Positions 14,719-29,303 of a DNA stretch of 34,514 nt are shown here, one piece after another (within the stretch, counting starts at the first letter, position 1; each line of letters begins with the position of its first letter). Origin of the DNA: Pseudomonadota bacterium (GTDB taxonomy: Bacteria > Pseudomonadota > Gammaproteobacteria > Steroidobacterales > JBCBZW01); NCBI GenBank assembly GCA_039193195.1, contig JBCCWS010000056.1:1-34514 (forward strand), in the 5' to 3' direction. The position numbers and the translations under genes were made by a program. The notes beneath the pieces were generated by a model. The model ran no database searches. It saw only the letters and a program-made list of their open reading frames with translations, and was not told where the DNA came from.

Positions 14719-14823
14719 TCAAGGCCTGAAAGCGCCTGTGCGAGCCGCGCCAAGTGACCGCCCAATGCGCTTAGGGGTATGCTGTTTCCACCGCCCCAAA
14801 ATGCGGTCAGCGAGGAGAGCAAC

Positions 14824-16566
14824 GTGCGTCACCAGGGAAGGTATACGGTGTGGGTGCTGGTGTGCCTGGCGTTGATAGTCGGTGCCGCGGCGCACCCGTC
14901 AACGGTCCCCGTCGCCTCGTCGACTTGCGATGCAATAGCGCTAGGTGCTTCGGTCCCGGCCGGAATTGCCTACGATGCCGCGCTGGATCAGTTCGTCATC
15001 ATCGACGCGAGCGAGAGTATCGCGTTCCGCACTGACCGCGAGTGCAATGCAACGTCAAGCTTCGATCTCACCGCCCTCGGCGCCGCCGGTGCTCAGGGGG
15101 TGGCCGTTAACAGTACAGATCGCACGTACGCGTTCGTAGCACCGAACCGCCAGCTCGTGTTTGCCACGGATGCGGGCATCGCTCTCGGCTCGTGCAACCT
15201 CCTGCCGGCGCTGGTCTTGCGACCAGTTGGAATCGACTACGATCCCGTCAGAGATGCTTACGTCGTGCTCGACGCGAGTGACGACGAGATCGTGTTCATC
15301 GCCAGCGGCGTCACGGACGGCAGCGCGTGCCCGGTACTCGGCAGGGGCGTGGTCGAGCGCCTTGGCGACTTCCCGCGCGACGGCCTAGCCCTGTTGCCGG
15401 AGGGACGGATCGCGCTCGTCGAGCGCCAGGCCGACCGCGTGGTCCTGGTCGATACCGCGCTGGAGATCGTCGACAGCTTCTTCGTCAACTTCGAAGTGGG
15501 TGTCAGCGTTCCCGTCGCCATCACCTACGTGCCGGACGCGCAGCGCCTATACCTGTTGGACATGGCACTGGAGCTCGTCGAGGTGGATATCCGCGGTCAG
15601 TCGACTCGACGGTGTGACTTGGCTGAGTTGTACCCGGATCTCAACGCGCGCGCCGGGCTTGCCCTAGACGCGTCGCGGTCCCAATTGCTCGTGGGCGACG
15701 ATGGATCATCTTCCGTGTGGGCGTTGGATGCCGACACGTGCGAGCTGGTCGAGATTCTCTCGCTTGCATCGGCAGGCCTGGACACGTTGGATGCCATCGC
15801 CTACGACGCGTCCCGCGACCAGATCATCGTGGGCCAGCTAGCAGGAAGGCAACTGGCGTTCGTCGATCGCCAGCTCCTCACCCTGCGTGCGCGCTGCACG
15901 CTCGCGACCAATGGCGTACCGACGGCGGTAGTGCCCCTCGAGGCCTTCGGGTGGTTCGCGATCGCCGACACGGTCAGTGAAGTCAGTGTTCTGGACAGGC
16001 GCTGCGAGTTGATCGAGAGCAACGGGGTCGGCTTCTTCGGCGTGTTCACGGCCGACGCCCTCACCTACGGTCCGCTTGGCGAAGTGCTCTTTTTCGGCGA
16101 CGCTCGTGGCGGCATCACCACGCTGGAAGGCAGCGACGATCGCTTTCGCTTCGACGTGCCCTTCGACGCTTCCGTGCGTGAGGCCTCGGGCGTCCTTCCC
16201 TTGCCCGGCGAGCGCGGCAAGTACCTGGCGCTCATCAGGAGCAGCAACGACCCCTCGGGCTTCGCCGTCAACGAGCTGGATATTCCGCTCTTCGCTGAGC
16301 CGGTGAGCGTCGCCGGTACGTTCTCGAACGGATCCCTGACCTTGGCGTTGATCGCGCGTCCGGACGACACCGTGACGGGGCGCCTAAGTGCGGGCGTTCA
16401 GAGTACGACGGTTATCGGGTTCGTCGACCCGCAGGCGGGCACGATCGGCTTGAGCTTCCGCCCCTTCAGTGGGGGGGATGCGCTTTCCATCAACGGCACG
16501 GTGAGCTCGGACCTGGAAGTCCTAGAGCTGTCTGCGCCCCTGGGTACGATGGTGCGTCAACCATGA
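14824..16566 (+). CDS. Secreted beta-propeller protein, copy A1
   Basis: A 580-residue exported protein of unknown function. I start it at GTG 14824 (VRHQGRYTVWVLVCLALIVGAAAHP, a signal peptide) because GAGGAG lies just upstream and the paralog at 25376 begins at the aligned codon. The mature protein is made of NHL/YVTN-like blades with the recurring form GIAYDxxxDxFVxxDAxxxxxxxVD (PAGIAYDAALDQFVIIDASE, PVGIDYDPVRDAYVVLDASDD, LDAIAYDASRDQIIVG). Cysteines recur at fixed places (TCDAIALG, RECNATSS, GSCNLL, SACPVL, RRCDLAEL, DTCELVEI) and may form disulfides. The last ~85 residues (VAGTFSNGSLTLALIARPDDTVTG to the end) are a beta-rich domain found in all four paralogs here. Its stop overlaps the ATG of the next gene, so the two are translationally coupled. 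Confidence 0.82.
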   Translation: MRHQGRYTVWVLVCLALIVGAAAHPSTVPVASSTCDAIALGASVPAGIAYDAALDQFVIIDASESIAFRTDRECNATSSFDLTALGAAGAQGVAVNSTDRTYAFVAPNRQLVFATDAGIALGSCNLLPALVLRPVGIDYDPVRDAYVVLDASDDEIVFIASGVTDGSACPVLGRGVVERLGDFPRDGLALLPEGRIALVERQADRVVLVDTALEIVDSFFVNFEVGVSVPVAITYVPDAQRLYLLDMALELVEVDIRGQSTRRCDLAELYPDLNARAGLALDASRSQLLVGDDGSSSVWALDADTCELVEILSLASAGLDTLDAIAYDASRDQIIVGQLAGRQLAFVDRQLLTLRARCTLATNGVPTAVVPLEAFGWFAIADTVSEVSVLDRRCELIESNGVGFFGVFTADALTYGPLGEVLFFGDARGGITTLEGSDDRFRFDVPFDASVREASGVLPLPGERGKYLALIRSSNDPSGFAVNELDIPLFAEPVSVAGTFSNGSLTLALIARPDDTVTGRLSAGVQSTTVIGFVDPQAGTIGLSFRPFSGGDALSINGTVSSDLEVLELSAPLGTMVRQP

Positions 16567-18296
16567 AGTGCGAACACGTCGCAGCGAGCAGATCCATGCA
16601 CCGTGTGTATCCCCTGCTGGGGGTCTTGCTGTTTCCGCTCCTGGCGCAGGCCGAGCGGGTGGCGATCGAGACGGACCAATGCGCGGTAGCCGCCATCGGT
16701 GCGACTCGACCTGCGGGGATCGCTTACGACAGCCTTCGCGACCGGCTGGCGGTCGCGGACGCCGCTACGGATACGGTCTACTTCGTCGATACGCAGTGCG
16801 CCCTCTCCAGCAGCCTGTCCCTTGCCACCCTCGGGGTGACCCGTCCTGCCGGGCTCACTTACCGCGATGATCTAGACAGCTACGCCGTGGTCGATGCAGA
16901 TCCACCGTATCTGCAAGCGTTCACGCCCACGGGGGATGCGGCAGGGGGCTGCGATCTAGGCGCTGAGGGTGTTGGCTTCCCGAGCGCGGTCGCCTGGGAA
17001 GCGAGCACAGCACGCTTCGCGGTGCTCGACGACGCCAGCAATGAGCTGATCTTCGTAGACGCCAGCGCCCTGGATGATGGGCCCTGCACCGTGGTCGAGC
17101 GCCAGCCAACGGGCCTGATCGGTGTCGATAGCGGCGTTGGTCTCACCCAATCAGACCCGGACGCTTCGCTTGTGGCCATGAATCTCAGTGATCGGCGCGC
17201 CTATTTCATCAATGGCGACGGTGACCTATTGGCAGAGTTCGGCACGGAGTTTTCACTCGGCACGGTGGCGCCTGCCGGCATCGCCTACGCCGGCGCGGCC
17301 GACCGGTACTACGTAGTAGATGGCGTGACGACTTTCGTACACGAGGTGGACGGGCGTGGCACGATCACGCGCAAGTGTATGCCCGGCGGGGTTTTGGACG
17401 ATTTCGCTATCGATACGCGGCGCCAGCAACTGATATTGCTAGATATCACGTCCTTGGTAGCACGGCGCTCTCGCCTCAGCGACTGCGCCGAGATCGCGCC
17501 GCCCCTGAACCTCGCACCCTTCGGGATCGAGCTCGCCTCCGGTGTCGGTTACGACGAGCGCGAAGACCAGTACATCTTCACGGACCGCGACGGGCCGGGT
17601 ACGCTCTACTTCGTCGACGCCGCGACGAATGCGTTGGTGGGCAGCTGCAATCCAGATCCTGTGGGTGAGGACCCGACGCGGGTCAACGGCCTGGGCCGGC
17701 TCGGTTGGCTGTGGGTGGTGGGGGATTCGGGCGCGTCCTGGAATGCCATTCTCGATCGTGACTGCTCGCTCATCGAGCAGTGGCCGGGCCCGGGTACCAA
17801 CGATACGGGGGGCAGTTTGCTGACCGGCGTCGGTGGCCTGATCAGCACGAATTTCGTTCCCGGAGTCATCACCCTGGCAACCTTCGAAGGACGAACGGTG
17901 CGATCGATTGACACGCGGGATGTCGACGCCGTGCCAACGCGTCTGCGCAGCTTGCCCAATCAGATGGATCGCTTCCTGGCCACCACCGACAACACGCTGT
18001 ACGAATGGCATCTGCCCCTGTTGGCGGACGTCTTCGGGGTATCTGGCGCCTTCGCTCGCCCTGGGGTGACGCTCACCCTGTTCGAGTTGAACGCGGGTGA
18101 TTCGTTGCTCGGTCTACTCGAGTTCAGTGCCAACCAGGTGCGCGTCGTCGGCACCTACGCGGCACAGGGCAACGCGTTGAGCATCTCCTTCCGCAATCCC
18201 CAGGGCTCGCTGGTGACGCTGAACGGTACGATAGACGAAGGCCTCGGTGTGATCACATTGCCGCCGCCCCTGGGGCGTCTCGAACGTAGGCAATAG
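16563..18296 (+). CDS. Secreted beta-propeller protein, copy B1
   Basis: A 577-residue exported protein whose ATG overlaps the stop of copy A1 (ATGA). The signal peptide runs to about residue 31 (MHRVYPLLGVLLFPLLAQA; an alternative ATG lies at 16596). The mature N terminus, ERVAIETDQCAVAAIGATRPAGIAYDSLRDRLAVADAATDTVYFVD, is nearly superimposable on copy B2 (ERIAIETSRCAGADFGATRPTGIAYDSLRD). Propeller-like blades (PAGLTYRDDLDSYAVVDAD, PAGIAYAGAADRYYVVDGVTTFVHEVD, GVGYDEREDQYIFTDRDGPGTLYFVD) fill most of the length, with spaced cysteines as in the other copies. The C-terminal domain starts near GVSGAFARPGVTLTLFE and ends LPPPLGRLERRQ. The function is unknown; a periplasmic or surface scaffold or adhesion role is a guess. 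It converges with the ATPase gene. Confidence 0.82.
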   Translation: MKCEHVAASRSMHRVYPLLGVLLFPLLAQAERVAIETDQCAVAAIGATRPAGIAYDSLRDRLAVADAATDTVYFVDTQCALSSSLSLATLGVTRPAGLTYRDDLDSYAVVDADPPYLQAFTPTGDAAGGCDLGAEGVGFPSAVAWEASTARFAVLDDASNELIFVDASALDDGPCTVVERQPTGLIGVDSGVGLTQSDPDASLVAMNLSDRRAYFINGDGDLLAEFGTEFSLGTVAPAGIAYAGAADRYYVVDGVTTFVHEVDGRGTITRKCMPGGVLDDFAIDTRRQQLILLDITSLVARRSRLSDCAEIAPPLNLAPFGIELASGVGYDEREDQYIFTDRDGPGTLYFVDAATNALVGSCNPDPVGEDPTRVNGLGRLGWLWVVGDSGASWNAILDRDCSLIEQWPGPGTNDTGGSLLTGVGGLISTNFVPGVITLATFEGRTVRSIDTRDVDAVPTRLRSLPNQMDRFLATTDNTLYEWHLPLLADVFGVSGAFARPGVTLTLFELNAGDSLLGLLEFSANQVRVVGTYAAQGNALSISFRNPQGSLVTLNGTIDEGLGVITLPPPLGRLERRQ

Positions 18297-18365: not shown

Positions 18366-21300
18366 CTAGCTTGACGGCCGACTCCGTGCGGCCATCGCCA
18401 TGACCTCCTCTTCCGTGGGCGGTGACTTCGAGTGGTAAGAGAGGCAGAGCGGCGATTGCACCTTGCGTGGTGCATGCATGGCCGAGGAATGCACGTAGAA
18501 GGTGCCCTGGGAGAGCTTTGCGATATCGCTGCCCGAAGCGCCGCGCTGATTGAGCAGTTCACGAACCGTATGCAAGGCAGCCGGCGATGAGGCCTTGCCG
18601 TAAAACTGTGTGTCGCAATTCGCAATGACGTTGTGATCGATGCTCTTCGGTGCCTGCGTGGCCAACAACAAGCCAAAGCCGTACTTGCGTGCTTGAGCAG
18701 CGAGGCGCACGAGGGGCTCTTTAGAGGCGACGCTTGTCATTGAAGGCACCAGGTCCTTCGCCTCGTCGACCACGATCAGGCCGCCCAGCGCGTGGTCGCT
18801 AGGCGTGGGGTGGCGCTTCATCCACGCGAAGAGGTTAATGGCGAGCTGTGCCACGAAACTCTGTTGCGCGTTCAAGCCCCCAAGTCCGGCGAGGCTGACC
18901 ACGGAGACCCGGGTCTTGCCGCTGCTGCCGTTGAACAGTCGCTGGGGATCGAGAGGAGTACCCTGTTGGCGCAGCAGCGGGTTGATGGCGCGTTCCGCGC
19001 GGAGGTTATCGGCCATTTCCCCGGCCAGCTTCTGGGCGCCACCGATGCCGGCGCCCGCATCAGCGGGCAGGTCAGCAAGGAAGTCGATGAACGCATCGAG
19101 TGACTGGTGGGGGATGCTCGCGAAGGCATGCATGGCGCTCGCCAATACGCCTTTCTTATGCAAGGACTTGGTGGAGCTACCCGGCGCTACGATTCCCTCC
19201 AGGCTGCTGGCCGCGAGTCGGACGGCCTTGTTGAGTTCATCGGTCGTGAGACCGCTGAGGTTGGGCAGAGGCTCGAGCTGTAGCGGGTTGCCGCTGAGTT
19301 GGCCAGGCGTCCAGACTACGACCTCAGCCTGCTCATGGTAGGCGCGCGCCAGGCGCGCCTCCTCGTCTGTCCAGCTGCGCGCCCCTTGCGGCCAGGCGTG
19401 GCCAAGCATGGCCATGTCATTGGCACCGTCAAGGATGACCGAGGGTACTCCGCGAAGGGCGGCTTCTTCGATCAGGCGCTTCACCAGAACGGTCTTACCT
19501 GAACCGGCACTGGCAAGCGCTACCAAATGCCTACGTAAGCCTTCAAGCGGTATAGTCACTGGTTCGCCCGTGTGTTCTCCGAAGACTTCGCTGCCCAGGG
19601 GGAATACGTCGCGAACTATGGGGCCGGCGCTCGCGCTGTCTTCTCGTTGCTTGCCTGCGTTTGATGGGGGCGCGGGAGGAAGGGGCGGCTTGTGTGGTTC
19701 CGTCTCTTGCGTGAGGGGCTTGGGCGGTGTGGGCTGAGGTGGCGTTAGCTTAGGCGGATCTTGAGCGGGAGGCGTTGCGGTCTTCGTGGGTACTGAATCA
19801 TCTGGCAGGGTCACGTGTTGGAACAGCGCAAACCCATCGAGCGGCCGGACCCTGACCAGCCACTCACCGAAGTCCTCTGGCTTCTCGCGGCTGATCCTCG
19901 CCAGGGCCCACAAGGCTCGCAGTTCTTCCTCCTCCGGCGCATGCAAGACTCCGCCAGCCTCCTTGAATTGCTCTACCATGCGCTCTGTCACGGTGCCGCC
20001 AGGCAACGGGAATGACCTCACGATGACAAGCTTGCGGAAACCGAGGTTGCGGTCGATGCCCGAGGCGGTCACGGCGTTGCGCAGGCGGTTCTGAAAAGCT
20101 CGCGCGTTACTGCGTTGGAGCGCGTAGAACGCGAAGTGCCGTTCCTTGTCGTTGGCGGCACGGTCGATGAGTCGGATCCGCACATCGAGCGGGCGCAGCC
20201 GCTCACTGCCGAAGCGGTGGTCCACGACGCCGTCGACGCTAGTACCCAGGGCCGCTTCGTTTTGCCGCAGAAACGCCGAGCACGCGTGTTTCATTGCGTT
20301 GTAGAACAGATCCCTATCGGCATCTTGATCGCAGAACCCGGAGAGATCTGCCTCGGCCTGTAGCTCGATGTAGCGACGCGACAGGGGATGCTCTGTCGTC
20401 TCTCCATCTGGTATGGGTGTTGTCACCGCTGATGCCGTCGGCAGCTCCGCGATTTCCAGCACTTCCTTGTCATACAGGCAACGGCGCCGATGCTCGTGCG
20501 CTGTGCGCAGCAGCTCGCGCGGAAACAGAGTCCTGGCCTGTTCGAAAAACTCGGGTTTGAACGGATAAGTGGCATACGGTGGTTGATAGTCGTGCTCGCG
20601 AAAGGCGGGCGACAGGCGCTGTTCCACCAACTGGCGAGCCGTGTCGGCGTTACTGAGGCCTGCGAGCGGAATGGGTAGCTGAAAGCGATCTCCGAAGGCG
20701 CGGAGGTTGCGCTCTCGAAGCAGGCTCCACGTCTCTTCGAGGCAGCTCACGAGGGTGATCGCCCGGTAGGAGCGCTCGAACACGCTCATCAGGCCTGTGC
20801 CTATGCCCTGAACGATAGACTGAGCGCGTAGGTGCTCGTTCGTGCTCCCCTGTTCGAGCATCTCCGTTACGTGGCTATGAGAGATGATCGCATCTAGTTG
20901 ATCGAAGGCGATCACCACGGGACCCCCTCGGCTAAGGCACCATAAGGCCCCCTCTACGATATCGATGGAGCTGGCGGGCTGGCTCGGGAAACCCGTCCAC
21001 TCGCACTCTTGCGCTGTGAGTTCGTTGCCTAGGAGCCAGCTGCTGGCGTAATCCTGATGGTCGAAGTCTTCGCTGCCGAGCATGAGCAGCGCGCGTGCCT
21101 CGTACTGGAAGCGAGATGCGCGCAGGCGCTGTACGGGAAGTCGCAGACGGCGCGCTAGCTGGTTGGGCGCCACACCGGTCAGGAAGCTGGAGATGTCCTC
21201 ACCTACACGCGGAAACAGGCGTGGGAGCACCTTGTCGATCTGTCGCGTGCCGTCGTCCAGGGTTGCGTTGAGTGAGTCGTAGATGCCGGAGCGCAGCGTG

Positions 21301-21608
21301 TCCCAGAAATCGTTGACGTCCGTCATGTCGCACAAGATGAAGCTAGCGCCGAGTTCCATCGCTCGCTCGCGGAACTTGCCCAGCAGGTGGGTCTTTCCTG
21401 AGCCTGCCGTGCCGACCAGTACGCCTCCGAGTTCGTTGCTGTCCGAGCTGCGTCGGGACAGTCGGTTGACCGAACTCACTAGCTCGTCGAGTGCGTCTCT
21501 GTGGATGTTGGCCACATGGTACGAGTCATTGGACCAAACCGATGACAGCTGGGAAGTCCAGTCGAAATCCACGTCTCGAAGGGCACTGAGTGCCTGCTGC
21601 TTGCTCAT
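18366..21608 (-). CDS. Dual P-loop ATPase: AAA/ORC-like N-terminal plus HerA/FtsK-like C-terminal module
   Basis: A 1080-residue cytoplasmic protein with two complete nucleotide-binding modules. Module 1 has Walker A GTAGSGKT (66-73) and Walker B VVIAFDQLD (231-239), with an AAA/ORC or STAND-like arrangement and a helical lid (about 315-390). Residues 420-610 form an unassigned middle domain (RDLFYNAMKHACSAFLRQNE, FRKLVIVRSFPLPGGTVTERM). A proline-rich linker spans about 613-650. Module 2 has Walker A SAGSGKTV (700-707), a DGAND segment, Walker B GLIVVDEAKDL (943-953) and LLLATQAPKSID (980-991), as in HerA/FtsK-type DNA motors. It is the third gene of the operon, 9 bases after the wHTH-like gene, with GAGG overlapping that stop. 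By analogy it would translocate or remodel DNA for the nuclease encoded two genes upstream; that is inference. I cannot name the family. Confidence 0.87.
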   Translation of the reverse strand: MSKQQALSALRDVDFDWTSQLSSVWSNDSYHVANIHRDALDELVSSVNRLSRRSSDSNELGGVLVGTAGSGKTHLLGKFRERAMELGASFILCDMTDVNDFWDTLRSGIYDSLNATLDDGTRQIDKVLPRLFPRVGEDISSFLTGVAPNQLARRLRLPVQRLRASRFQYEARALLMLGSEDFDHQDYASSWLLGNELTAQECEWTGFPSQPASSIDIVEGALWCLSRGGPVVIAFDQLDAIISHSHVTEMLEQGSTNEHLRAQSIVQGIGTGLMSVFERSYRAITLVSCLEETWSLLRERNLRAFGDRFQLPIPLAGLSNADTARQLVEQRLSPAFREHDYQPPYATYPFKPEFFEQARTLFPRELLRTAHEHRRRCLYDKEVLEIAELPTASAVTTPIPDGETTEHPLSRRYIELQAEADLSGFCDQDADRDLFYNAMKHACSAFLRQNEAALGTSVDGVVDHRFGSERLRPLDVRIRLIDRAANDKERHFAFYALQRSNARAFQNRLRNAVTASGIDRNLGFRKLVIVRSFPLPGGTVTERMVEQFKEAGGVLHAPEEEELRALWALARISREKPEDFGEWLVRVRPLDGFALFQHVTLPDDSVPTKTATPPAQDPPKLTPPQPTPPKPLTQETEPHKPPLPPAPPSNAGKQREDSASAGPIVRDVFPLGSEVFGEHTGEPVTIPLEGLRRHLVALASAGSGKTVLVKRLIEEAALRGVPSVILDGANDMAMLGHAWPQGARSWTDEEARLARAYHEQAEVVVWTPGQLSGNPLQLEPLPNLSGLTTDELNKAVRLAASSLEGIVAPGSSTKSLHKKGVLASAMHAFASIPHQSLDAFIDFLADLPADAGAGIGGAQKLAGEMADNLRAERAINPLLRQQGTPLDPQRLFNGSSGKTRVSVVSLAGLGGLNAQQSFVAQLAINLFAWMKRHPTPSDHALGGLIVVDEAKDLVPSMTSVASKEPLVRLAAQARKYGFGLLLATQAPKSIDHNVIANCDTQFYGKASSPAALHTVRELLNQRGASGSDIAKLSQGTFYVHSSAMHAPRKVQSPLCLSYHSKSPPTEEEVMAMAARSRPSS

Positions 21609-21617
21609 CGATCTGCC

Positions 21618-22256
21618 TCAGCGAAGGTAGACTAGGTGCCGCGCATGTGGCTCTGTGCCGATGGCCGCGGCGCGGTCGGTTTCCGTAAGCCGCAGGGGAT
21701 CGTCCATGGTGTACAGGACCATCTGGCTGCTGGCTTCGAGTTCCCGTAGCCCTGCGTCGAAGGCACGTCGCTCGATGGATGGGCACGCGCGGCGCAGTTC
21801 CGCGAGTTTGACCCGCACGGCGCGCTGTCCGTTGGTGATGCTCAGGTACGCGCTGACCAGCGCGTTGGCGGCTGAGCTGCCGGCCGCTATGGCCTTGGCG
21901 TGGCGGTCGGAGACGAGTAACTCGGCTAGGTTGAAGCCACGGTTCTCCAAGTAGGAACCCAGGGCCATCAGAATCGACTGGAGGGGGTAGCCCGCGTAGC
22001 GACTCTTCTCATACTCCAGGATCGTCGATAGGTTGGCGGTAGCCCACTCCCACCCTTGATCAGTCACCGCAAGGGCAAACGTGCTGCCGTGCGGTTCGCA
22101 GGTGATCAGGCCAAGGTCCGCCAACTCCTTGCGCTGGGCCGACTCGATGACCTTGCGGGTCTCCAGGTCCTTATTCAGGGCCTCGCCTTGCTGAGCAAAT
22201 ATGAGTTCCCATAGAAAGAGCCCTTGCTTGTAGTGTGGTGTCCAGTCATCAATCAT
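21618..22256 (-). CDS. Winged-helix-like protein of the nuclease/ATPase operon
   Basis: A 212-residue soluble protein with no signal peptide. Residues ~12-72 have a winged-helix look: helices (GLFLWELIFAQQGEALNKD, RKVIESAQRKELADLGLI) followed by a wing-like strand pair (CEPHGSTFALAVTDQGWEWA). A second such unit may lie at about 135-212 (VRVKLAELRRACPSIERRAFDAGLRELEASSQMVLYTMDDP, ending ARHLVYLR), where the LRELE...VLYxMDDP...RHLVYLR pattern resembles a helix and beta-wing. It could bind DNA as a regulator or as a subunit of the ATPase complex. Its ATG overlaps the stop of the nuclease gene by four bases and its stop lies 9 bases before the ATPase start, so all three are tightly coupled. I do not recognise a named family. 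Confidence 0.78.
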   Translation of the reverse strand: MIDDWTPHYKQGLFLWELIFAQQGEALNKDLETRKVIESAQRKELADLGLITCEPHGSTFALAVTDQGWEWATANLSTILEYEKSRYAGYPLQSILMALGSYLENRGFNLAELLVSDRHAKAIAAGSSAANALVSAYLSITNGQRAVRVKLAELRRACPSIERRAFDAGLRELEASSQMVLYTMDDPLRLTETDRAAAIGTEPHARHLVYLR

Positions 22257-23299
22257 CTTCGGAGTTCCCGTTCGGCTTCCAGCATTGCCGTCATGTCGCG
22301 GACCTTGTCGACGGCGATGGCGACGTCTTGCTCTACTTCCTCGTGTGTCAGACGAAGTACGCGGTACCCCGCAAGCATCAGTCGGTAGTCCCGTTCCCGA
22401 TCGGCCCTGAACTGCTCACGACCGCTGTGCCAGCGATAGCCGTCGATCTCAACGATGAGCGGCCCATCGCGCCACAGTATGTCTACTTCGTAAGAGTACG
22501 CGTAGGCGGCATCAACGCGCTCGTTGAACAGGAAGCGACCCGCCATCGACGCGTCCTGCTGCAAGGCGTTGGCGAGCTTAGCCTCTGTGCCGCTGCGAAA
22601 GCCCAAACGCTCGTTATTGCCAGTGCTTCGAGTTGCCGACTCATCATGCTTTCCATCGCCATTGTGCACCTCACGTAGGGACGGGAGGCTCTCATCTAGG
22701 GGTGCATCGACCGCGTAGTAGGCGATGGGTATCAGGGAACCCAGTTCGATCAGCTCCTCGTCGATGTGTAACTCCACGTTGCAGCGCACGGCGTCCACGA
22801 GCCAGCGAAACACAGCGACCACCGCATCGAGATGCGCCGCGCTGTTGCCTTGCGGCAGCAGGGCGAGCGTGCGCTCTTCGATGGCGCCAAGCCACTGCCT
22901 GCACTCACTGGCAGGTGCGCGAGCGTACGAGCGCAGCGCGCCGTCGAAGCGCAGCGCGTGAATCGTATGCTCTAGCCAGCGGCGATCGACCTCAGGATGT
23001 TCGGCCGTGATGTTGGCGATAGCGGCCGTAAGCTTTAGGCTTGCCTCAGGCGATTTGATGCTTCTATCGAGAAGTTTGGTGCCGAACCACCTTGGCCATT
23101 TCAGTTGAGCCGTTAGTGCCAGCTCGTTAAGGATGAACTGAATGACCTCCGCCGATCGCACGAGGTGCCCAGGCACGCGCAAGGGGGCAACGCGGGAGGC
23201 GAGCCCGGCGGCCCCTCGCCAAGCGAACACTCGGATGTTGCCTTGCACGCCGGCGGATCCTTCCTGAGTCGTGGTCAAGGCCTTCCAGCCTAGCGCCAA
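22253..23299 (-). CDS. DUF559/Vsr-like PD-(D/E)XK nuclease
   Basis: A 348-residue protein whose last third is a DUF559/Vsr-type endonuclease domain: GTEAKLANAL (Glu239), then YEVDILWRDGPLIVEIDGYRWH with Asp273, Glu284, Asp286 and His291, then RADRERDYRLMLAGYRVLRLTHEEVEQD (301-325), the family's basic/acidic helix and final strand. These residues match the expected metal-binding catalytic site, so it is probably active on DNA. The N-terminal ~235 residues are mostly helical and unrecognised. It is the first gene of the operon. The start is doubtful: the only nearby candidate is TTG 23299, without a good ribosome site; the frame is open for 14 more codons up to a TAG at 23339-23341, and beyond that stop the same frame is open again to 23596. 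Confidence 0.82.
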   Translation of the reverse strand: MALGWKALTTTQEGSAGVQGNIRVFAWRGAAGLASRVAPLRVPGHLVRSAEVIQFILNELALTAQLKWPRWFGTKLLDRSIKSPEASLKLTAAIANITAEHPEVDRRWLEHTIHALRFDGALRSYARAPASECRQWLGAIEERTLALLPQGNSAAHLDAVVAVFRWLVDAVRCNVELHIDEELIELGSLIPIAYYAVDAPLDESLPSLREVHNGDGKHDESATRSTGNNERLGFRSGTEAKLANALQQDASMAGRFLFNERVDAAYAYSYEVDILWRDGPLIVEIDGYRWHSGREQFRADRERDYRLMLAGYRVLRLTHEEVEQDVAIAVDKVRDMTAMLEAERELRR

Positions 23300-23627: not shown

Positions 23628-25379
23628 CTACTGTTGGCGAGGCAGGCGACCTAGGGGCGGCGGCAGGACGATCGCCTGTAGATCTGCCTCCACGGTGCCG
23701 TTCAGCGTCACCAGCGTGCCCTGGGGGTTTTGAAAGGAGACGCTGACCGCCGCCGTGTCGCGATCGAAGGTGCCCACGATGCGTAGGTCCCTGCCGGGCA
23801 GCGCGATCGTCCCTAGCAGCGATGTGCCGTCTCCTAGTTCGAACAGACTGACGGACAAAGCCCCGCGGCTGAAGGTGCCCGAGGCACCGAACGGTTCTGC
23901 AAACAGTGGCACCGACCAGCGGTACAGTGAATCGCCAATCGCCACCAGGAAACGCCCGCCTGAACCGGGCAGGGCCCGGATGCTATCCGGCCTCGATCCG
24001 ACGCGCAGGTCCCGCGGATCGATCCTGTAGACGCTCAGTCCCTCCAGCGTGACCAAGTTGACCGACGCGGGACCGGCCTCGGCCGTGACCAGCGCGCCGA
24101 CGCCTGGCAGGAAGCTGCCCCCAGTCTCACCGAGGTCAGTCTCCGGCCACTGCTCGATGAGGTTGCAGTCACCGTCGAGGACGGCGTACCAGGGCAGCTC
24201 GAATCCTTCGCCGAACACGAACAGCCATCCTAGAGACCCAATTCCGCTAACTCTCCTCGGCTCATCTCCGACGCGTTGCGGGTTGCATGTGCGGGCAAGG
24301 GAGAGGGAACTCACGTCCACAAAGTAGAGCGCGCCGGGATCGCCGCTCTCTGTGAACACGTACTGATCGTCGCGGTCGTTGTAGCCGACGCCAAAGGTAG
24401 AGGCGATGCCGAAGTCGCCGAGGAACAGCGCAGATCCCAGCTCAGTGCAGTCGCTCAGGCGGTAGCGTCGTACCGTACGCGTGTCGCGGTCGAGTACCAG
24501 CACCAAGGAGCGCAGGGTATCGATGGTGAAGTCATCGATCCTGCCGCCAGGCACGCATCTGCCGCCCGTCGATCCACGGGCATCGACTTCATGTACCACG
24601 GTGGTCTGACCATCGACGACGTAGTAGCGACCGGCCTGCGCCGCATAGGCAATACCCGCTGGCTGTACGCTGTCGAGGGAGAATCGGGTGCCGAACTCAT
24701 CGATGAGCTCGTTGGCACCAGCGTCGAGCAGATGGGCACGGCGATCCGCCCCATCCAGGGCCACGAGGGCAGCGTCCGGAGTGGCTTGGGTGAGCGCCGC
24801 GCCTTGCTGCACCCCCACCGCAGCGCTGGACACGCGTTCGGCGATGGTGCATGCGCCTCCGCCGAGGTTGCTGCCGTCCACGTACACGATCTCGCCGGTG
24901 GCCTCATCGAGCACGGCGAAACGTGCAAGTGCGTCTACCCAGGCAATCGCCGTGGGGTTCACTAGCCCAGCGGCCGCAAGACTGCACGCCCCCGCTGACT
25001 CCCCAGCGGGCGTGAACACTTGTAGCTGTGCCGGCTCGACGGTCGAAACGGCGAACGCATCCAGATCGGCGCGATAGGTGACGCCGGTCGGGTGCCTAGC
25101 GTCCAGGAGGGTCAGGTCGACCGTACTGCTGACGTTGCAGTGCCTATCGAAAAAGTAAGCTTTTTCTGTGGCCGCATCGACCACAACCAGTTCATCGCGG
25201 AGCGAATCGTAGGCAATTCCCGTCGGGCGTGTGGCGCCGAAATCGGCGCCTGCACAGCGACTTGTCTCGATGGCAATGCGCTCGGCATGCCCTGCCAACG
25301 GTGCTAGCGAGGCGATGACGACGAGTGAGAGGAGCACACGAGTGCCTGCGATCGAAGTAGCTAGGTGCTTCATCTTCAT
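23628..25379 (-). CDS. Secreted beta-propeller protein, copy B2
   Basis: A 583-residue exported protein, the paralog of copy B1. The signal peptide ends near residue 32 (VLLSLVVIASLAPLAGHA). Matching landmarks with B1 include ATRPTGIAYDSLRDELVVVDAATEKAYFFD, PAGIAYAAQAGRYYVVDGQTTVVHEVDARG, GVGYNDRDDQYVFTESGDPGALYFVD, DCNLIEQWP and the ending LPPPLGRLPRQQ. The cysteine positions are also kept. It is built of NHL/YVTN-like propeller blades plus the shared C-terminal beta domain (ASGTFSRGALSVSLFELGDGTSLLG). Its ATG overlaps the stop of copy A2 by four bases. The function is unknown. It lies 328 bases upstream of the nuclease gene on the same strand, so read-through into the nuclease operon is possible. 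Confidence 0.82.
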   Translation of the reverse strand: MKMKHLATSIAGTRVLLSLVVIASLAPLAGHAERIAIETSRCAGADFGATRPTGIAYDSLRDELVVVDAATEKAYFFDRHCNVSSTVDLTLLDARHPTGVTYRADLDAFAVSTVEPAQLQVFTPAGESAGACSLAAAGLVNPTAIAWVDALARFAVLDEATGEIVYVDGSNLGGGACTIAERVSSAAVGVQQGAALTQATPDAALVALDGADRRAHLLDAGANELIDEFGTRFSLDSVQPAGIAYAAQAGRYYVVDGQTTVVHEVDARGSTGGRCVPGGRIDDFTIDTLRSLVLVLDRDTRTVRRYRLSDCTELGSALFLGDFGIASTFGVGYNDRDDQYVFTESGDPGALYFVDVSSLSLARTCNPQRVGDEPRRVSGIGSLGWLFVFGEGFELPWYAVLDGDCNLIEQWPETDLGETGGSFLPGVGALVTAEAGPASVNLVTLEGLSVYRIDPRDLRVGSRPDSIRALPGSGGRFLVAIGDSLYRWSVPLFAEPFGASGTFSRGALSVSLFELGDGTSLLGTIALPGRDLRIVGTFDRDTAAVSVSFQNPQGTLVTLNGTVEADLQAIVLPPPLGRLPRQQ

Positions 25380-27115
25380 GGCTCTCGCGCCATCGTGCCG
25401 AGCGGTGCTGATAGCGTCAAGCTCTCTAAGTCTGCGGCAACGGTGCCGCTGACCGAGAGGGCGTTGCCGCCGCCGATGGGGCGGAAGCTCAGTCCGATCG
25501 TGCCCGCCTCGGGATTGACGATGCCGACCACGCTCGTGCTCTGGTCGCCAAAGGTCAGCAACCCGATAAGTGTATTATCGGGGCGGACGATCAGGGTCAG
25601 TGTCTGAGCGCCGTTCGAGAAGGTGCCAGCAACACTGCGTGGCTCTGCGAGCAAGGGGATCGTCAACTGGCGCAGATCGAAGACGATCTGATCGGCCAGG
25701 CTGCGCGCGGTGATTAGGTAGGTGCCGCGCTGGCCGGGGATCGGCACCGCGCCCGCAGCGGAAGGCACCGAAGGGTTGGCGGGCGTATCGAAGGTAAACG
25801 GCTCGACGCTGCCCTCGAGAGTGGTGACGCCGCCCCTGGAGCTCGAGAAGTACAGCAGCTCGCCCAACGGCCCCAAGGCCATGGCGTCAGGATCTCGAAT
25901 GTTGAAGAAGCTCACGGCATTGCGCTCTACGATTCGGCATTGCTCATCGAAGACGACGAAGTCACCGTTCTCATCGCCCACGCCAAACCATCCTTGGGGC
26001 GCTATTGGCACAATGGTGTTGGTCCTGCGCGATGACAGCTGGCATCGGACCAGCGGCGCTAGGGTTTGTCGGTCGAGGATCACGAGCTCGTCGAGGTCAG
26101 CGTCCGCGAGGGCGATGCGATCCCCGGCGGCGTCGTAGGCGATAGCGCTGAGTCGGGAGAATCCTGCGGCGATCGGCGTCAGGATCTCAATCAGGGCGCA
26201 GGTGGCAGCATCCAAGGCCCAGATTTCCGTCAGCGCGTTGTGGGGCAGTAGCAGCTGGGAGCGCGACGGGTCCAGCGCGAGGCCTGCCTGGGGATCGAGG
26301 GATGGGTGCAGTGCGAAAAGATCGCAGCGCAGCTCCGCCTGACCCCTGATATCCACCTCGAGAAGGCGGTTGGAACTCTCATCGAGAACGTGTAGGCGTT
26401 GCGTCGCGTCCACGTAGGTGATTGCTAGGGGAGCACGCCCTCCCACTTCCCACGCCGTGCGGAAGCTATCGACGACGGTGAGCGTCTGGTCGAGCAACAC
26501 CACACGCTCGATTATCTGCTCGAGCAACGCGATGCGCCCGCCAGGCAGCAATGCCAGCCCGATCCTTGGATAGTCCTCCAAGCCCTGCACCCTGCCCCTT
26601 GCGAGCACGGGGCAGGCACCGCCGTCGGTGACGTCGCTCGAGATGAAGACGATCTCGTCGTCGTCATCATTCAAGATAACGTAGGCCTCGCGTACGGGGT
26701 CGTAGTCGAGGCCTGTGGGGCTTCGCACCTGGGAGGCGAGCAGATCACAGCTGCCAAGGCCAAGGCCTGCAGCGGTGGAGAAGACCAGTGCTCCGACCGG
26801 TGTGACGAAGGCGTAGGTACCATCGGCGCTGTTGACGGCAACCCCTTGGGCGCCAGTTGCGCCAAGGGCCGTGAGGTCGAAGCTAGCGCTCTCGACGCAC
26901 TGACGATCAACTCTGTAGGCCGTGCTCTGCGCGGCGTCGATGAGCACGAACGCGTCCAGCGCCTCGTCGTGGGCGATGCCGCTCGGTGACACCGCACCTA
27001 CCGCGCTCGTATCGCAGGACGAGGTGGTGATGGCCAAGGTGGCGGAGTACACCCGGGGGCTCACCAACGTGACCAGCGATAGCAGCAACGCTGCCACCTT
27101 TCCTTGGTTATGCAA
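25376..27115 (-). CDS. Secreted beta-propeller protein, copy A2 (TTG start)
   Basis: A 579-residue exported protein, the paralog of copy A1. I start it at TTG 27115: AGGAGGGG lies 4 bases before it, the sequence AAC-TTG-CAT-AAC-CAA-GGA aligns with AAC-GTG-CGT-CAC-CAG-GGA at the A1 start, and a signal peptide follows directly (KVAALLLSLVTLVSPRVYS). An ATG at 27304 would add 63 unlikely residues and overlap the upstream gene. Shared landmarks with A1: SFDLTALGATGAQGVAVNS, GLDYDPVREAYVIL, DEIVFISSDVTDGGACPVL, EVDIRGQ and GTIGLSFRP. The blades and C-terminal domain (VAGTFSNGAQTLTLIVRPDNTLIG) are as in the other copies. The function is unknown; it was probably co-transcribed with copy B2 from the start. 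Confidence 0.83.
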   Translation of the reverse strand: MHNQGKVAALLLSLVTLVSPRVYSATLAITTSSCDTSAVGAVSPSGIAHDEALDAFVLIDAAQSTAYRVDRQCVESASFDLTALGATGAQGVAVNSADGTYAFVTPVGALVFSTAAGLGLGSCDLLASQVRSPTGLDYDPVREAYVILNDDDDEIVFISSDVTDGGACPVLARGRVQGLEDYPRIGLALLPGGRIALLEQIIERVVLLDQTLTVVDSFRTAWEVGGRAPLAITYVDATQRLHVLDESSNRLLEVDIRGQAELRCDLFALHPSLDPQAGLALDPSRSQLLLPHNALTEIWALDAATCALIEILTPIAAGFSRLSAIAYDAAGDRIALADADLDELVILDRQTLAPLVRCQLSSRRTNTIVPIAPQGWFGVGDENGDFVVFDEQCRIVERNAVSFFNIRDPDAMALGPLGELLYFSSSRGGVTTLEGSVEPFTFDTPANPSVPSAAGAVPIPGQRGTYLITARSLADQIVFDLRQLTIPLLAEPRSVAGTFSNGAQTLTLIVRPDNTLIGLLTFGDQSTSVVGIVNPEAGTIGLSFRPIGGGNALSVSGTVAADLESLTLSAPLGTMAREP

Positions 27116-27221
27116 GTTCCCCTCCTGGGTCAGCCCGACGATGCAGCGGCCATGCCTGCAGATAGGGGAGTACGGACAACGGGGAAGAACCCGACTCGAG
27201 GCTGCTGCTCGCACGCTAGCC

Positions 27222-29303
27222 CTAAGGCACTTGCCCGGCGAGTCTAACCTCGATTCGGTCGCCGATCTGGGTGACCAGGCCGTCCTCAGCACAGCTCCAT
27301 TCACCGAACTCGTCGATCGTCAGCGCGACCGTCTGTCCCGTGCCTATGTTTCGGCATAGGCCCTGAGCCTCGACCAGGCGGTCCGCATCGCCCTGCAGCG
27401 CTGTTCCCACGCTCACGCCGCCTAGCGTAAGCAGGACGCGTTCGCCGCTGGAGATGCTCAGGCCGGCCTCCTCGCAATTCGCGGCGGCGCTTTGCGGCGT
27501 ACCCTCGAATGGCGCTGGTAACCGCTGCGAGGTGGTGATGTTGACGCAGTTGAGCTGCCTCGCTGCCGCGCCGGCTACCTCGAGCCCAAGTTCGAGGCGT
27601 CTGCCGAAGACCACGAACGCGTCGCTGGAGAACGGGCTTCCTTGACCGACGGCGATATCACTGACGCCATCCCCATTCAGATCTGTCACGCTCAGCGATT
27701 GACCCGCGGTCGAGCCGACGCCTTGTATGACGAACCCTAGCGTGCCGTCTCCACCGTTCTCCGCGGACAGCGACTCGAGCGCGATCTCAGCCGGGAACCC
27801 GGCATCTTGCCCGAAAATGACATAGGTCCTGCCGCCGCTGGCCACCACTATGTCGTCGATGCTATCACCGTTGACGTCACCTCCCGCGACGGCGTTGCCA
27901 ACGTACTGAAAGGCGTCGAATCCGTTCACGACGACGCCCAGGCTGCCGTCGCCTCCCTCTGCGATGGTGAGTTGACTCAGCTCGAGTAGCGGTGGAAAAC
28001 CTGCATCGGAACCGAACACCACGTACGCATCGCCTCCTAGGGATGCGCGCGGTGCCCCCAACAATACATCGTCGATGCCATCGCCGTTGAAGTCGCCGAC
28101 AAGGCTCAGCGCACCGCCAGCGACGTCGCGCTCCTCGATGCCCGCGATCACCACGCCCTCGCTCCCATCGCCGCCGGCTATCGGGAACAAGCTGGCCAGC
28201 TCGAAAGCAGCACCGTGTTGCACTGGTGCGGGATTGAATATCAGATAGCCGATGCCCGCTTCTGTGCGTTCGCCAGGCGACTCTTCGGGGGCGCCGATGA
28301 ATAGATCTAAGCGGCCGTCGGCGTTGATGTCTCCGCCGCTCGCGATGGCCGTGCCCGTACGCGTCAGCTGATTTACGCCGTTGATCACGACGCCGGCGGA
28401 GCCATCGCCCCCGTTCTGGGCCAGCAAGCTGGTGAGTTCGAACTCTGCAGCAAATGCGGGGGCGCCAAACACGATGTAGACCAAACCAGCGCTCGGCCGA
28501 CCGCCCGGGTCGGACTCGGGTGAGCCCACGGCGATTTCACCAAGTCCATCGCCATTCAGATCGGGCAGCAGTTGAACGCTACTGCCTGCCCGACCGCCCA
28601 CGTCACGAGGGAATAGGACGACTCCCTCGGAGCCGTCGCCGCCGTTCTCAGCCGCGAGGTCGGACAATTGCACTACTGGGGGAAACCCTTCGCTGCGGCC
28701 GAACAGCACGTAGGCTGAGCCGGCACCGAACTGGCCCTCAGGTTCCGCGTTGTAGGCGCCGATGATCAAATCGTCCAGGCCATCACCGTTGACGTCCGCG
28801 CCGGCGCCGAGTGCGTCACCGGCACGCTCATCGGCGGCGAAGCCACCGATGACGAACCCTAAGCTCCCGTCCCCGCCGTTTATCGGCAGCAGCGAGGCCA
28901 GGTTGATGGAAGGCGCGAACCCCGTGTTCGATCCGAAGATCGTGTAGATTCGGCCCGCCGCAGCACCGTCTTGCGTATCCCCGAAGGATGCGCCAACCAT
29001 AAGATCGTCGATGCCGTCGCCATTGATATCGCTGCTGGTGACCGCGACGCCCACGCGGTCATACGACTCGGCCTGTAGGAGGGCGAACCCGTCGCGGCCA
29101 TCACCGCCGTTCTCAGGCAGCAGGCTCGACACGTCGAACTCAGGCGGAAACACGGGCTCCCCGGCCTCCACCTGGAGTGCTACGCCCGTGAGGCCGACGG
29201 TAGCGAGCGCTGCCAGCGCTGTTGCTGCGCAGCGAGCTTGCTCGCGGATGGCGCAGCTGACCGCGAGTTGCAGACGGAGGGGATCCCGAACGCGAGCTTC
29301 CAT
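27222..29303 (-). CDS. Secreted FG-GAP repeat (integrin-alpha-like) protein
   Basis: A 693-residue protein with seven FG-GAP-type units. Each unit pairs an NGGDGSxGxV motif (LLPENGGDGRDGFAL, LLPINGGDGSLGFVI, LAAENGGDGSEGVVL and so on) with a calcium-binding loop DxNGDGxxD (DINGDGIDDLMVG, DVNGDGLDDLIIG, DFNGDGIDDVLLG, DLNGDGVSDIAVG) and a strand such as AYVLFG or TYVIFG. This predicts a seven-bladed, calcium-stabilised propeller, as in integrin-alpha heads and many secreted bacterial proteins. The ~110-residue C-terminal tail (LNCVNITTSQRLPAPFEG onward) is a separate domain with several cysteines. I chose ATG 29303 for its GAGGG ribosome site and because a hydrophobic export segment follows (ALAALATVGLTGVALQVEAG); the frame is open to 29474. 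It lies 106 bases upstream of copy A2. Confidence 0.9.
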   Translation of the reverse strand: MEARVRDPLRLQLAVSCAIREQARCAATALAALATVGLTGVALQVEAGEPVFPPEFDVSSLLPENGGDGRDGFALLQAESYDRVGVAVTSSDINGDGIDDLMVGASFGDTQDGAAAGRIYTIFGSNTGFAPSINLASLLPINGGDGSLGFVIGGFAADERAGDALGAGADVNGDGLDDLIIGAYNAEPEGQFGAGSAYVLFGRSEGFPPVVQLSDLAAENGGDGSEGVVLFPRDVGGRAGSSVQLLPDLNGDGLGEIAVGSPESDPGGRPSAGLVYIVFGAPAFAAEFELTSLLAQNGGDGSAGVVINGVNQLTRTGTAIASGGDINADGRLDLFIGAPEESPGERTEAGIGYLIFNPAPVQHGAAFELASLFPIAGGDGSEGVVIAGIEERDVAGGALSLVGDFNGDGIDDVLLGAPRASLGGDAYVVFGSDAGFPPLLELSQLTIAEGGDGSLGVVVNGFDAFQYVGNAVAGGDVNGDSIDDIVVASGGRTYVIFGQDAGFPAEIALESLSAENGGDGTLGFVIQGVGSTAGQSLSVTDLNGDGVSDIAVGQGSPFSSDAFVVFGRRLELGLEVAGAAARQLNCVNITTSQRLPAPFEGTPQSAAANCEEAGLSISSGERVLLTLGGVSVGTALQGDADRLVEAQGLCRNIGTGQTVALTIDEFGEWSCAEDGLVTQIGDRIEVRLAGQVP

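What the first reader, a model, noticed from the sequence alone, without database searches (positions are those of the whole stretch)
18366..23299. Three-gene operon: DUF559-type nuclease, winged-helix-like protein and dual-ATPase motor; candidate uncharacterised defence or DNA-processing system
Seen: three minus-strand genes with a 4-base overlap and a 9-base gap; PD-(D/E)XK/DUF559 residues in the first, wHTH-like pattern in the second, two intact P-loop modules in the third. Known: nuclease plus HerA-type ATPase is a recurring pairing in anti-phage systems and in DptFGH-like and NurA-HerA systems. Inference: this is a self-contained system of that kind. I could not match the trio to a named system.
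Basis: partly seen in the sequence, partly recalled or inferred. Interest (0 to 1): 0.82.

Follow-up and report, generated by a model that had tools for sequence, protein, structure and literature searches.

The report
DNA-pumping motor and nuclease defence operon
Three bacterial genes that travel together encode a two-ATPase DNA motor, a DNA-binding adaptor and a DNA-cutting enzyme; they most likely seize and cut invading DNA, and they fit a class of defence systems predicted from genome comparison for which I found no experimental test.

Summary
Three minus-strand genes at 18366-23299 encode a DUF559-type nuclease (NUC), a winged-helix protein (MID) and a 1080-aa dual-ATPase protein (ATP). 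In 85 loci chosen by ATP match (seven phyla), MID lies beside ATP in 85 and NUC is found in 50. NUC active-site residues are invariant in 48 of 48 aligned sequences, the GxGKT cores of both P-loops in 30 of 30. ATP combines an ORC/STAND-type AAA module, an unmatched alpha/beta domain and a HerA/FtsK motor (top VIA match DndH-C, tied with HerA and VirB4). No PADLOC or NCBIfam system fits beyond the motor, but the domain set resembles the ORC/Cdc6-coupled 'HerA/FtsK capture systems' predicted in NAR 2024 (PMC10853773). For a conflict role: patchy distribution (27/118, 28/79, 1/196 genomes), a tree that crosses phyla, and divergent versions at one ribosomal-operon site in Rhodococcus. Against: no recurrent defence neighbours, 36 of 37 genomes positive in one Rhodococcus genus, nuclease absent in 34 of 84 assessable loci. 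Best reading: an anti-invader DNA-capture system with core MID+ATP and a detachable nuclease; probable new member of a predicted kind.

The parts
22253..23299 (-). NUC: DUF559/REase-type nuclease, 348 aa, with an uncharacterised N-terminal region (residues 1 to about 235)
   Evidence: ORF; Pfam DUF559 E 2.5e-7; homologues
22298..22594 (-). NUC nuclease domain (residues 236-334); E239, D273, E284, D286, H291, D300, R303, D304, R316 invariant
   Evidence: 48 of 48 aligned sequences; profile matches PDB 3hrl (endonuclease-like protein) E 3.3e-13
21618..22256 (-). MID: winged-helix adaptor, 212 aa, fast evolving
   Evidence: ORF; beside ATP in 85 of 85 loci; AlphaFold2 mean pLDDT 89.4
22023..22256 (-). 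MID N-terminal MarR/TubR-like winged helix (residues 1-78)
   Evidence: VIA Z up to 10.5; profile vs ZitR E 2.6e-4
21621..21902 (-). MID C-terminal domain (residues 119-212), winged-helix-like order of elements (my reading); also found inside giant helicase proteins of Rhodococcus
   Evidence: secondary structure; domain sharing (E 2.7e-25 to 2.8e-23 in the four read)
18366..21608 (-). ATP: dual-ATPase protein, 1080 aa
   Evidence: ORF; Pfam; AlphaFold2 mean pLDDT 85.6
20439..21608 (-). ATP N-terminal AAA module of ORC/STAND type (residues 1-390): Walker A 21390-21413, Walker B 'DQLD' 20892-20903
   Evidence: AAA_16 in 29 of 30 and BrxC_BrxD in 5 of 30 homologues; G69, G71, K72, T73 invariant in 30 of 30
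19800..20393 (-). ATP middle alpha/beta domain (residues 406-603), order alpha-beta-beta-beta-alpha-beta-alpha; candidate inactive restriction-endonuclease-like domain
   Evidence: AlphaFold2 secondary structure; no sequence match that stands out in Pfam, PADLOC or PDB
19614..19799 (-). disordered proline-rich linker (residues 604-665)
   Evidence: pLDDT under 50
18384..19616 (-). ATP C-terminal HerA/FtsK motor (residues 665-1075): Walker A 19491-19511, Walker B 'DE' 18762-18767
   Evidence: DUF87; DndH-C Z 29.8, S. solfataricus HerA Z 29.0, VirB4 Z 29.0; G702, G704, K705, T706, D948, E949 invariant in 30 of 30

Best explanation
The operon is an anti-invader DNA-capture system of the ORC/Cdc6-coupled HerA/FtsK class. 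MID (two winged-helix-like domains) and the ORC/STAND-type AAA module of ATP recognise or load onto incoming DNA. The HerA/FtsK module assembles into a ring (by homology) and pumps the duplex using ATP. NUC, the DUF559-type nuclease, docks on this machine and cuts the captured DNA. Shown here: the genes, domain homologies, invariant active-site residues in all three enzymatic modules, conserved operon order, transfer between lineages and fast turnover. Inferred: ring formation, physical complex, DNA as substrate, phage or plasmid DNA as target, and the order of steps.
For: Conserved operon: MID beside ATP in 85/85 loci (all chosen by ATP match), NUC in 50/85, mostly with overlapping or nearly touching frames. 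NUC active-site residues invariant in 48/48, GxGKT cores of both Walker A motifs in 30/30. Motor matches HerA-NurA, HerA-DUF4297, Sir2-HerA (Foldseek E down to 1.7e-12) and DndH-C (VIA Z 29.8). N-terminal AAA matches AAA_16 in 29/30 and BrxC_BrxD in 5/30. The domain set resembles the published HerA/FtsK capture class. Distribution: 1/196 genomes in the window's order, not in the same-genus genome listed there; 27/118 in the genus of L059, Mycobacterium/Mycolicibacterium; 28/79 in the genus of L033, Methylobacterium. The ATP tree puts the window with Thermodesulfobacteriota, Cyanobacteriota, Planctomycetota and others (SH-aLRT 99), apart from a 22-row alphaproteobacterial clade (98); NUC presence needs 11 changes, at least 9 forced (one NUC-negative row, L016, is a contig edge). 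Turnover at rplN-rpsQ: L051 vs L080 ribosomal proteins 91-100% identical, NUC 34, MID 46, ATP 55; L044 carries one ATP near L051's and a second almost identical to L080's (branches 0.008 and 0.015).
Against: Of 224 representative neighbours within three genes, PADLOC matches at E up to 1e-8 were single members per family except mad2 (3 members) in the capped lists shown; a few single ones are strong (a kinase matching PD-T4-6/mad6, DrmMI and type IIG methyltransferase models, MkoA), the call does not say in which locus, and no defence family recurs. The commonest Pfam families among 146 of them are mainly metabolic, transport or regulatory. In the genus of L075 (Rhodococcus) 36 of 37 genomes have it, and in Mycolicibacterium it sits in shared chromosomal contexts, unlike a typical mobile defence gene. 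34 of 84 assessable loci lack NUC, with no recurrent substitute apart from mycobacterial synteny. No match in 50,697 phage records; only 4 of 72,556 plasmid records, one of them motor only, one carrying ribosomal-protein genes and one 11.85 Mb long. The motor part also matches phage packaging and host-takeover families, so the motor alone does not imply defence. Flanking non-ribosomal genes near the Rhodococcus site also diverge (56-73%), so the contrast with ribosomal genes is partly one of rate. No functional test exists here.
Confidence: 0.6

Rival explanations
1. A DNA double-strand-break processing or repair machine, a bacterial analogue of archaeal HerA-NurA: the motor pumps DNA ends to the nuclease for resection.
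For: HerA-NurA structures are among the top matches of the motor (9x1m: Foldseek rank 2, VIA Z 27.2). Near-universal presence in one Rhodococcus genus (36/37) and shared positions in Mycolicibacterium fit a housekeeping role.
Against: NUC matches DUF559 and MTES_1575, with no NurA match in Pfam. Presence is patchy in three of the four taxa sampled with the MID profile (the exception is), NUC is often missing, and exchange between lineages is visible.
Confidence: 0.17
2. A system controlling transfer, segregation or maintenance of DNA elements: MID acts as a centromere-like binder (TubR-like fold) and ATP as a segregation or transfer pump.
For: MID N-domain is close to TubR as well as MarR (Z 10.5); the MID C-domain occurs in a helicase protein near TraM-type and MobF genes on a Rhodococcus plasmid; the motor also resembles VirB4, TrwB and FtsK.
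Against: Loci are mainly chromosomal or unassigned contigs, with no other recurrent gene beside them except synteny blocks; a nuclease with invariant active site is part of 50 of 85 loci; TubR is tied with many MarR-type matches.
Confidence: 0.1
3. The ribosomal-operon and other sites are simply permissive insertion points, and the operon is a selfish or nearly neutral cargo without a host function in immunity.
For: Apparently broken copies exist: NUC split in L037, MID split in L071 (sequencing error not excluded); other cargo with a TerD-like protein (label recalled) occupies the same Rhodococcus site.
Against: Catalytic residues are invariant although identity to the window is only 18-31% for NUC and 32-41% for ATP, which means purifying selection on the enzymatic modules.
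Confidence: 0.08

Closest known systems
ORC/Cdc6-coupled HerA/FtsK capture systems (predicted; NAR 2024, PMC10853773, sections 22 and 26 read in full)
   Same: ORC/Cdc6-type AAA, HerA/FtsK motor, an active REase-type nuclease, winged-helix protein, domains in one or several polypeptides, fast-evolving wHTH partner; motor related to DndH
   Different: The paper's text does not mention DUF559 and the two sections read do not describe this 1080-aa fusion, ribosomal-operon sites or NUC-less pairs; its supplementary list could not be read here, so this trio may be in it
DndFGH (DptFGH)
   Same: HerA/FtsK motor matched by DndH-C (7es4, Z 29.8, tied with HerA and VirB4); by the paper's account also a multi-wHTH partner (DndG) and a REase activity
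   Different: In the PADLOC scan only DndH models match, over the motor, E 0.025
HerA-DUF4297 and Sir2-HerA anti-phage complexes
   Same: HerA-type motor plus an effector enzyme
   Different: Effector is DUF559 rather than DUF4297 or SIR2; extra AAA and middle domains fused to the motor; extra MID gene
MADS (Mad8)
   Same: PADLOC mad8 is the best model for the motor in the window (4.7e-28) and matches 30 of 30 homologues
   Different: Only the motor domain matches; no other MADS model matches the three proteins at E up to 1
HerA-NurA (end resection)
   Same: HerA motor plus nuclease
   Different: NUC is not NurA by Pfam; ORC-type AAA fusion and winged-helix partner

Membership tests
ORC/Cdc6-coupled HerA/FtsK capture system | HerA/FtsK ATPase domain | tested here: met
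   DUF87 over cut-off; VIA Z up to 29.8, Foldseek E 1.7e-12
ORC/Cdc6-coupled HerA/FtsK capture system | ORC/Cdc6-clade AAA+ ATPase | tested here: met
   AAA_16 in 29/30 and BrxC_BrxD in 5/30 homologues; that AAA_16 belongs to the ORC/STAND clade is recalled, and PDB profile hits are general AAA+
ORC/Cdc6-coupled HerA/FtsK capture system | active REase-type nuclease of one of two families | tested here: inconclusive
   DUF559 nuclease with invariant active site; the text does not say whether DUF559 is one of the two families
ORC/Cdc6-coupled HerA/FtsK capture system | inactive REase inserted between AAA+ core and a C-terminal wHTH | tested here: inconclusive
   Domain 406-603 lies after the AAA module with a REase-like order of elements, but no sequence match, no domain-only fold search, and no clear wHTH behind it
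[quoted passage not shown]
   MID has a MarR-like wHTH and a second wHTH-like order of elements; MID 46% identical where ATP is 55% (L051 vs L080). Relation to DndG not tested
DndFGH | DndF, DndG and full-length DndH together | tested here: not met
   PADLOC scan of the three proteins: DndH only, motor part, E 0.025
MADS | mad1-mad8 gene set | tested here: not met
   Only mad8 matched in the trio; the six flanking window proteins scanned (of about 20 other predicted genes) have no methyltransferase or kinase by Pfam
HerA-NurA | NurA-family nuclease | tested here: not met
   Pfam scan of NUC gives DUF559 and MTES_1575 only
HerA-DUF4297 / Sir2-HerA | DUF4297 or SIR2 effector | tested here: not met
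   Pfam and PADLOC scans of NUC and MID
BREX | BrxC-type ATPase with PglZ and BrxX | tested here: not met
   BrxC_BrxD matches the AAA module in 5/30 homologues, not in the window's own; no PglZ or methyltransferase among the six flanking window proteins scanned
any anti-invader system | protects a host against phage or plasmid | not testable with these tools
   needs experiment

The most novel reading that the evidence does not exclude
The true core is the MID-ATP pair, a single-chain ORC-loader plus HerA-pump with a double winged-helix adaptor, which works without a fixed effector (NUC is a detachable module, gained or lost about 11 times) and in some Actinomycetota is kept as a swappable allele inside the ribosomal-protein operon, so that one near-core chromosomal locus acts as an allelic, restriction-modification-like immunity locus.
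Probability: 0.3. Interest if true: 0.7.

Novelty: new member of a known kind. Interest (0 to 1): 0.5.

Why it matters
The capture-system class has been predicted on paper; this operon gives a compact, three-gene, widely distributed form of it, present in culturable non-pathogenic genera such as Methylobacterium, in which each predicted part (loader, adaptor, pump, nuclease) can be removed one at a time. The natural NUC-less pairs ask whether such a pump can protect, or do something else, without its nuclease. Insertion and allele exchange inside a ribosomal operon is an unexpected place for such a system. It also warns that the mad8 model matches HerA fusions outside MADS.

Tried and rejected
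Single-sequence scans of genome contigs and viral contigs with ATP found no relative; an alignment was needed. The viral scan with the alignment found none, and tblastn of two ATP proteins against 50,697 phage records found none. These scans work by short patterns or by one sequence and do not exclude distant viral copies. A single-sequence MID search over 299 genomes of the phylum found 2, one of them the window's own.

Defence-island enrichment was looked for and not seen; there was no matched control set and the family lists are capped at 25, so absence is only suggestive. Of 226 selected neighbours, 224 were scanned with PADLOC (two long ones left out of A9) and 146 with Pfam. They came from loci outside an 18-locus mycobacterial synteny set, one representative per cluster, 100-900 aa, most ribosomal proteins dropped; genes were called by a simple codon-usage script.

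Middle domain of ATP: nothing in PADLOC, only single chance-level matches in Pfam and one in PDB at E 0.14, and none to NUC. The idea that it is an inactive REase-like domain rests on the order of secondary structure and on the published class. The VIA rows for ATP cover mainly residues 663-1075 and for MID mainly 2-78, so the other parts are barely tested by fold. For the window itself an empty-site comparison failed: the same-genus genome G306 has no match to the one flanking protein tried. The ATP tree is a quick one and the window is on a long branch, so only its exclusion from the alphaproteobacterial clade is used; the treekit label placing some Rhodococcus in Cyanobacteriota is taken as a name clash. 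Calmodulin hits and Cdc48/FtsH hits are treated as chance or generic. Weak NUC matches to DpdF (0.0018) and a homing endonuclease (0.0043) in PADLOC are read as shared nuclease folds. The MADS paper (Maestri 2024) is not held; the MADS gene set is recalled, with passages seen. Papers: PMC10853773 sections 22 and 26 and passages, PMC12839542 section 36 and passages, passages only of PMC12904381, PMC12322248 and PMC12458937; others were seen as search listings. Ten paper searches listed no paper on this trio; subscription journals and the capture paper's supplement were out of reach.
Full report
1. What is there. The window (contig G000:C56 of a 6.71-Mb, 113-contig genome) has three minus-strand genes at 18366-23299: NUC 22253-23299, MID 21618-22256 and ATP 18366-21608, with a 4-nt overlap and a 9-nt gap. 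G+C of the operon (about 0.61-0.63) is close to the flanks (about 0.64). NUC has DUF559 (E 2.5e-7); ATP has AAA_22/AAA_16 within residues 44-189 and DUF87/HerA from residue 682; MID has no family match. At E up to 0.001 the genome holds this one DUF559 match, and a second over-cut-off DUF87 gene on another contig.

2. Relatives. tblastn against plasmid records found full-length ATP homologues in Methylobacterium aquaticum, Nonomuraea gerenzanensis and Tsukamurella tyrosinosolvens, plus a motor-only match in Streptomyces. In the first three a NUC homologue and a gene in the place of MID precede ATP; the Nonomuraea MID is not significant by direct tblastn and was taken by position into the first profile. 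One more trio came from a phylum-mate genome, which by its coordinates is a Methylobacterium-group genome. In the 85 loci examined (window, 4 first relatives, 80 scan loci), MID lies beside ATP in 85 and NUC is detected in 50; all were chosen by ATP match, so ATP without MID would be seen but MID or NUC without ATP would not. One NUC-negative locus (L016) ends about 70 nt before MID, so 34 of 84 assessable loci lack NUC. No other gene recurs except mycobacterial synteny blocks, ABC-type and other large families, and the ribosomal operon. Hosts include Pseudomonadota, Actinomycetota, Cyanobacteriota, Thermodesulfobacteriota, Planctomycetota, Verrucomicrobiota and Sumerlaeota.

3. Conservation. 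NUC S236, E239, N259, D273, E284, D286, H291, D300, R303, D304 and R316 are invariant in 48 of 48 aligned sequences (of 50; L034 and L037, partial, were left out). In ATP, G69, G71, K72, T73 and G702, G704, K705, T706 and the second Walker B (D948, E949) are invariant in 30 of 30; the first Walker B reads D-Q-x-D with D236 in 29 of 30 and Q237 and D239 in 30 of 30. The 30 are a chosen subset of 87 ATP genes.

4. Structure. The MID model (pLDDT 89.4) has an N-terminal MarR/TubR-like winged helix (VIA Z up to 10.5 over 78 residues, rmsd 2.1; Foldseek itself gave no match at E up to 0.001; profile E 2.6e-4 to the regulator ZitR) and a C-terminal half with a winged-helix-like order of elements. 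The ATP model (pLDDT 85.6) shows the AAA module, a middle alpha/beta domain, a disordered linker (604-665) and the HerA/FtsK motor. The motor's top VIA match is DndH-C (7es4, Z 29.8, rmsd 3.8, 329 residues), tied with S. solfataricus HerA (29.0) and VirB4 (29.0), followed by anti-phage HerA complexes; Foldseek ranks HerA and HerA-NurA first. The AAA module matches AAA_16 in 29 of 30 homologues and BrxC_BrxD in 5 of 30. The middle domain has no convincing sequence match. The motor part also matches phage packaging and Zot-like families.

5. Distribution and turnover. MID is found in 1 of 196 genomes of the window's order, 27 of 118 of the genus of L059 (Mycobacterium/Mycolicibacterium), 28 of 79 of the genus of L033 (Methylobacterium; two of them partial matches), but 36 of 37 of the genus of L075 (Rhodococcus) at strong E-values, the 37th only at 4e-4. 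The ATP tree (86 rows) puts the window in a 13-row clade with Thermodesulfobacteriota, Cyanobacteriota, Planctomycetota, Verrucomicrobiota and Sumerlaeota rows (SH-aLRT 99), apart from the 22-row alphaproteobacterial clade (98). The window's branch is long (1.52), so its exact place is unsure. NUC presence needs 11 changes on the tree, at least 9 forced (one NUC-negative label is a contig edge), against a shuffled mean of 27.

6. A ribosomal-operon site. In Tsukamurella and six Rhodococcus loci (L044, L051, L075, L077, L080, L086) the operon sits between rplN and rpsQ on the opposite strand; in L051 and L077 nothing else was called there, and in Williamsia and Gordonia it is elsewhere in the same cluster. 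Of 30 rplN loci fetched out of 37 genomes, 20 have NUC within the fetched stretch, 8 show only a TerD-like gene there (name recalled from motif) and 2 show rpsQ near rplN (251 nt and about 1.3 kb apart). The 20 NUC copies are 91-100% (5), 64-67% (2) or 32-34% (13) identical to the L051 copy, while rplN in these 20 is 98-100% identical. L051 against L080: ribosomal proteins 91-100%, three other flank genes 56-73%, ATP 55, MID 46, NUC 34; L051 against L044, at similar ribosomal identity: ATP 83, MID 60, NUC 64. L044 carries a second MID-ATP pair whose ATP is almost identical to L080's. So versions appear to move between strains at this site, although part of the contrast with ribosomal genes is simply rate.

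7. Context. Among 224 representative neighbours, PADLOC families at E up to 1e-8 matched one member each, except mad2 with three, in the lists shown (25 of 32 and 25 of 61 families). Single strong matches exist: a kinase (PD-T4-6 2e-79, mad6 2e-75), DrmMI (3e-50) and type IIG (9e-46) methyltransferase models, MkoA (2e-36), BrxH-type helicase (2e-28). Their loci are not told. The 25 commonest of 179 Pfam families among 146 neighbours are mainly metabolic, transport or regulatory. No defence family recurs, but without a control this does not rule out enrichment. No match exists in the phage records and no relative was found in the viral contigs.

8. Known or new. PADLOC's best model is mad8, for the motor only; DndH reaches E 0.025. 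NCBIfam gives only sub-threshold HerA-type and AAA matches. PMC10853773 (NAR 2024; sections 22 and 26 read in full; passages) predicts systems made of an ORC/Cdc6 ATPase, an inactive REase, an active REase, a HerA/FtsK and a wHTH, in one or several polypeptides, some with a fast-evolving 2-4-wHTH protein, and proposes that they intercept invader DNA. PMC12839542 (NAR 2026; section 36 read; passages) extends this to a BREX-related capture system. Three of five features are met here and two are inconclusive. I therefore file the operon as a probable new member of that predicted kind; whether these very genes are in its supplement I could not check.

9. Mechanism and verdict. Most likely MID and the ORC-type module choose or load DNA, the HerA ring pumps it, and NUC cuts it (confidence 0.6, every functional step inferred). 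Rivals are DNA-end repair, a segregation or transfer pump, and neutral cargo. The near-core status in one Rhodococcus genus, the NUC-less pairs and the lack of recurrent defence neighbours are the main facts against a simple defence system.

Noticed in passing
window 14779-18296 (+) and 23628-27304 (-): The operon lies between the arms of an old inverted duplication of a two-gene pair (50% and 54% protein identity between arms; one protein has a sub-threshold NHL match; that they are secreted is a guess).
   Followed up: partly
L132:4762-11745, L133:7004-11761, L134:4433-11488, L135:8988-15962: The MID C-terminal domain occurs inside giant helicase proteins (open frames 1586-2352 aa; a methylase-like motif is my reading, not a call result) in Rhodococcus, and on a R. 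fascians plasmid near TraM-type and MobF genes.
   Followed up: partly
L136:4539-5321; L137:3285-10234: The same domain appears in an HTH protein on a Nonomuraea plasmid, and at four places in a Thermobispora plasmid, the best in a large hypothetical protein next to a phage portal protein gene.
   Followed up: no
L015, L044, L051, L075, L077, L080, L086 (rplN-rpsQ junction): The junction between rplN and rpsQ in the ribosomal cluster is an insertion site in Rhodococcus and Tsukamurella, holding different cargo, including a TerD-like protein (name recalled).
   Followed up: partly
L011:5958-8378: A second DUF87 protein (806 aa) in the same genome, 27% identical to ATP over 453 alignment columns, in a run of long same-strand ORFs; possibly another HerA-based system.
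   Followed up: no
PADLOC model PDLC04140 (mad8): The mad8 model matches 30 of 30 ATP homologues examined, so automated calls based on it alone may mislead; a full MADS set was not looked for gene by gene in each of those loci.
   Followed up: partly
L037 (NUC), L071 (MID): Apparently split copies of NUC and MID, suggesting decay in some lineages or sequencing error.
   Followed up: no
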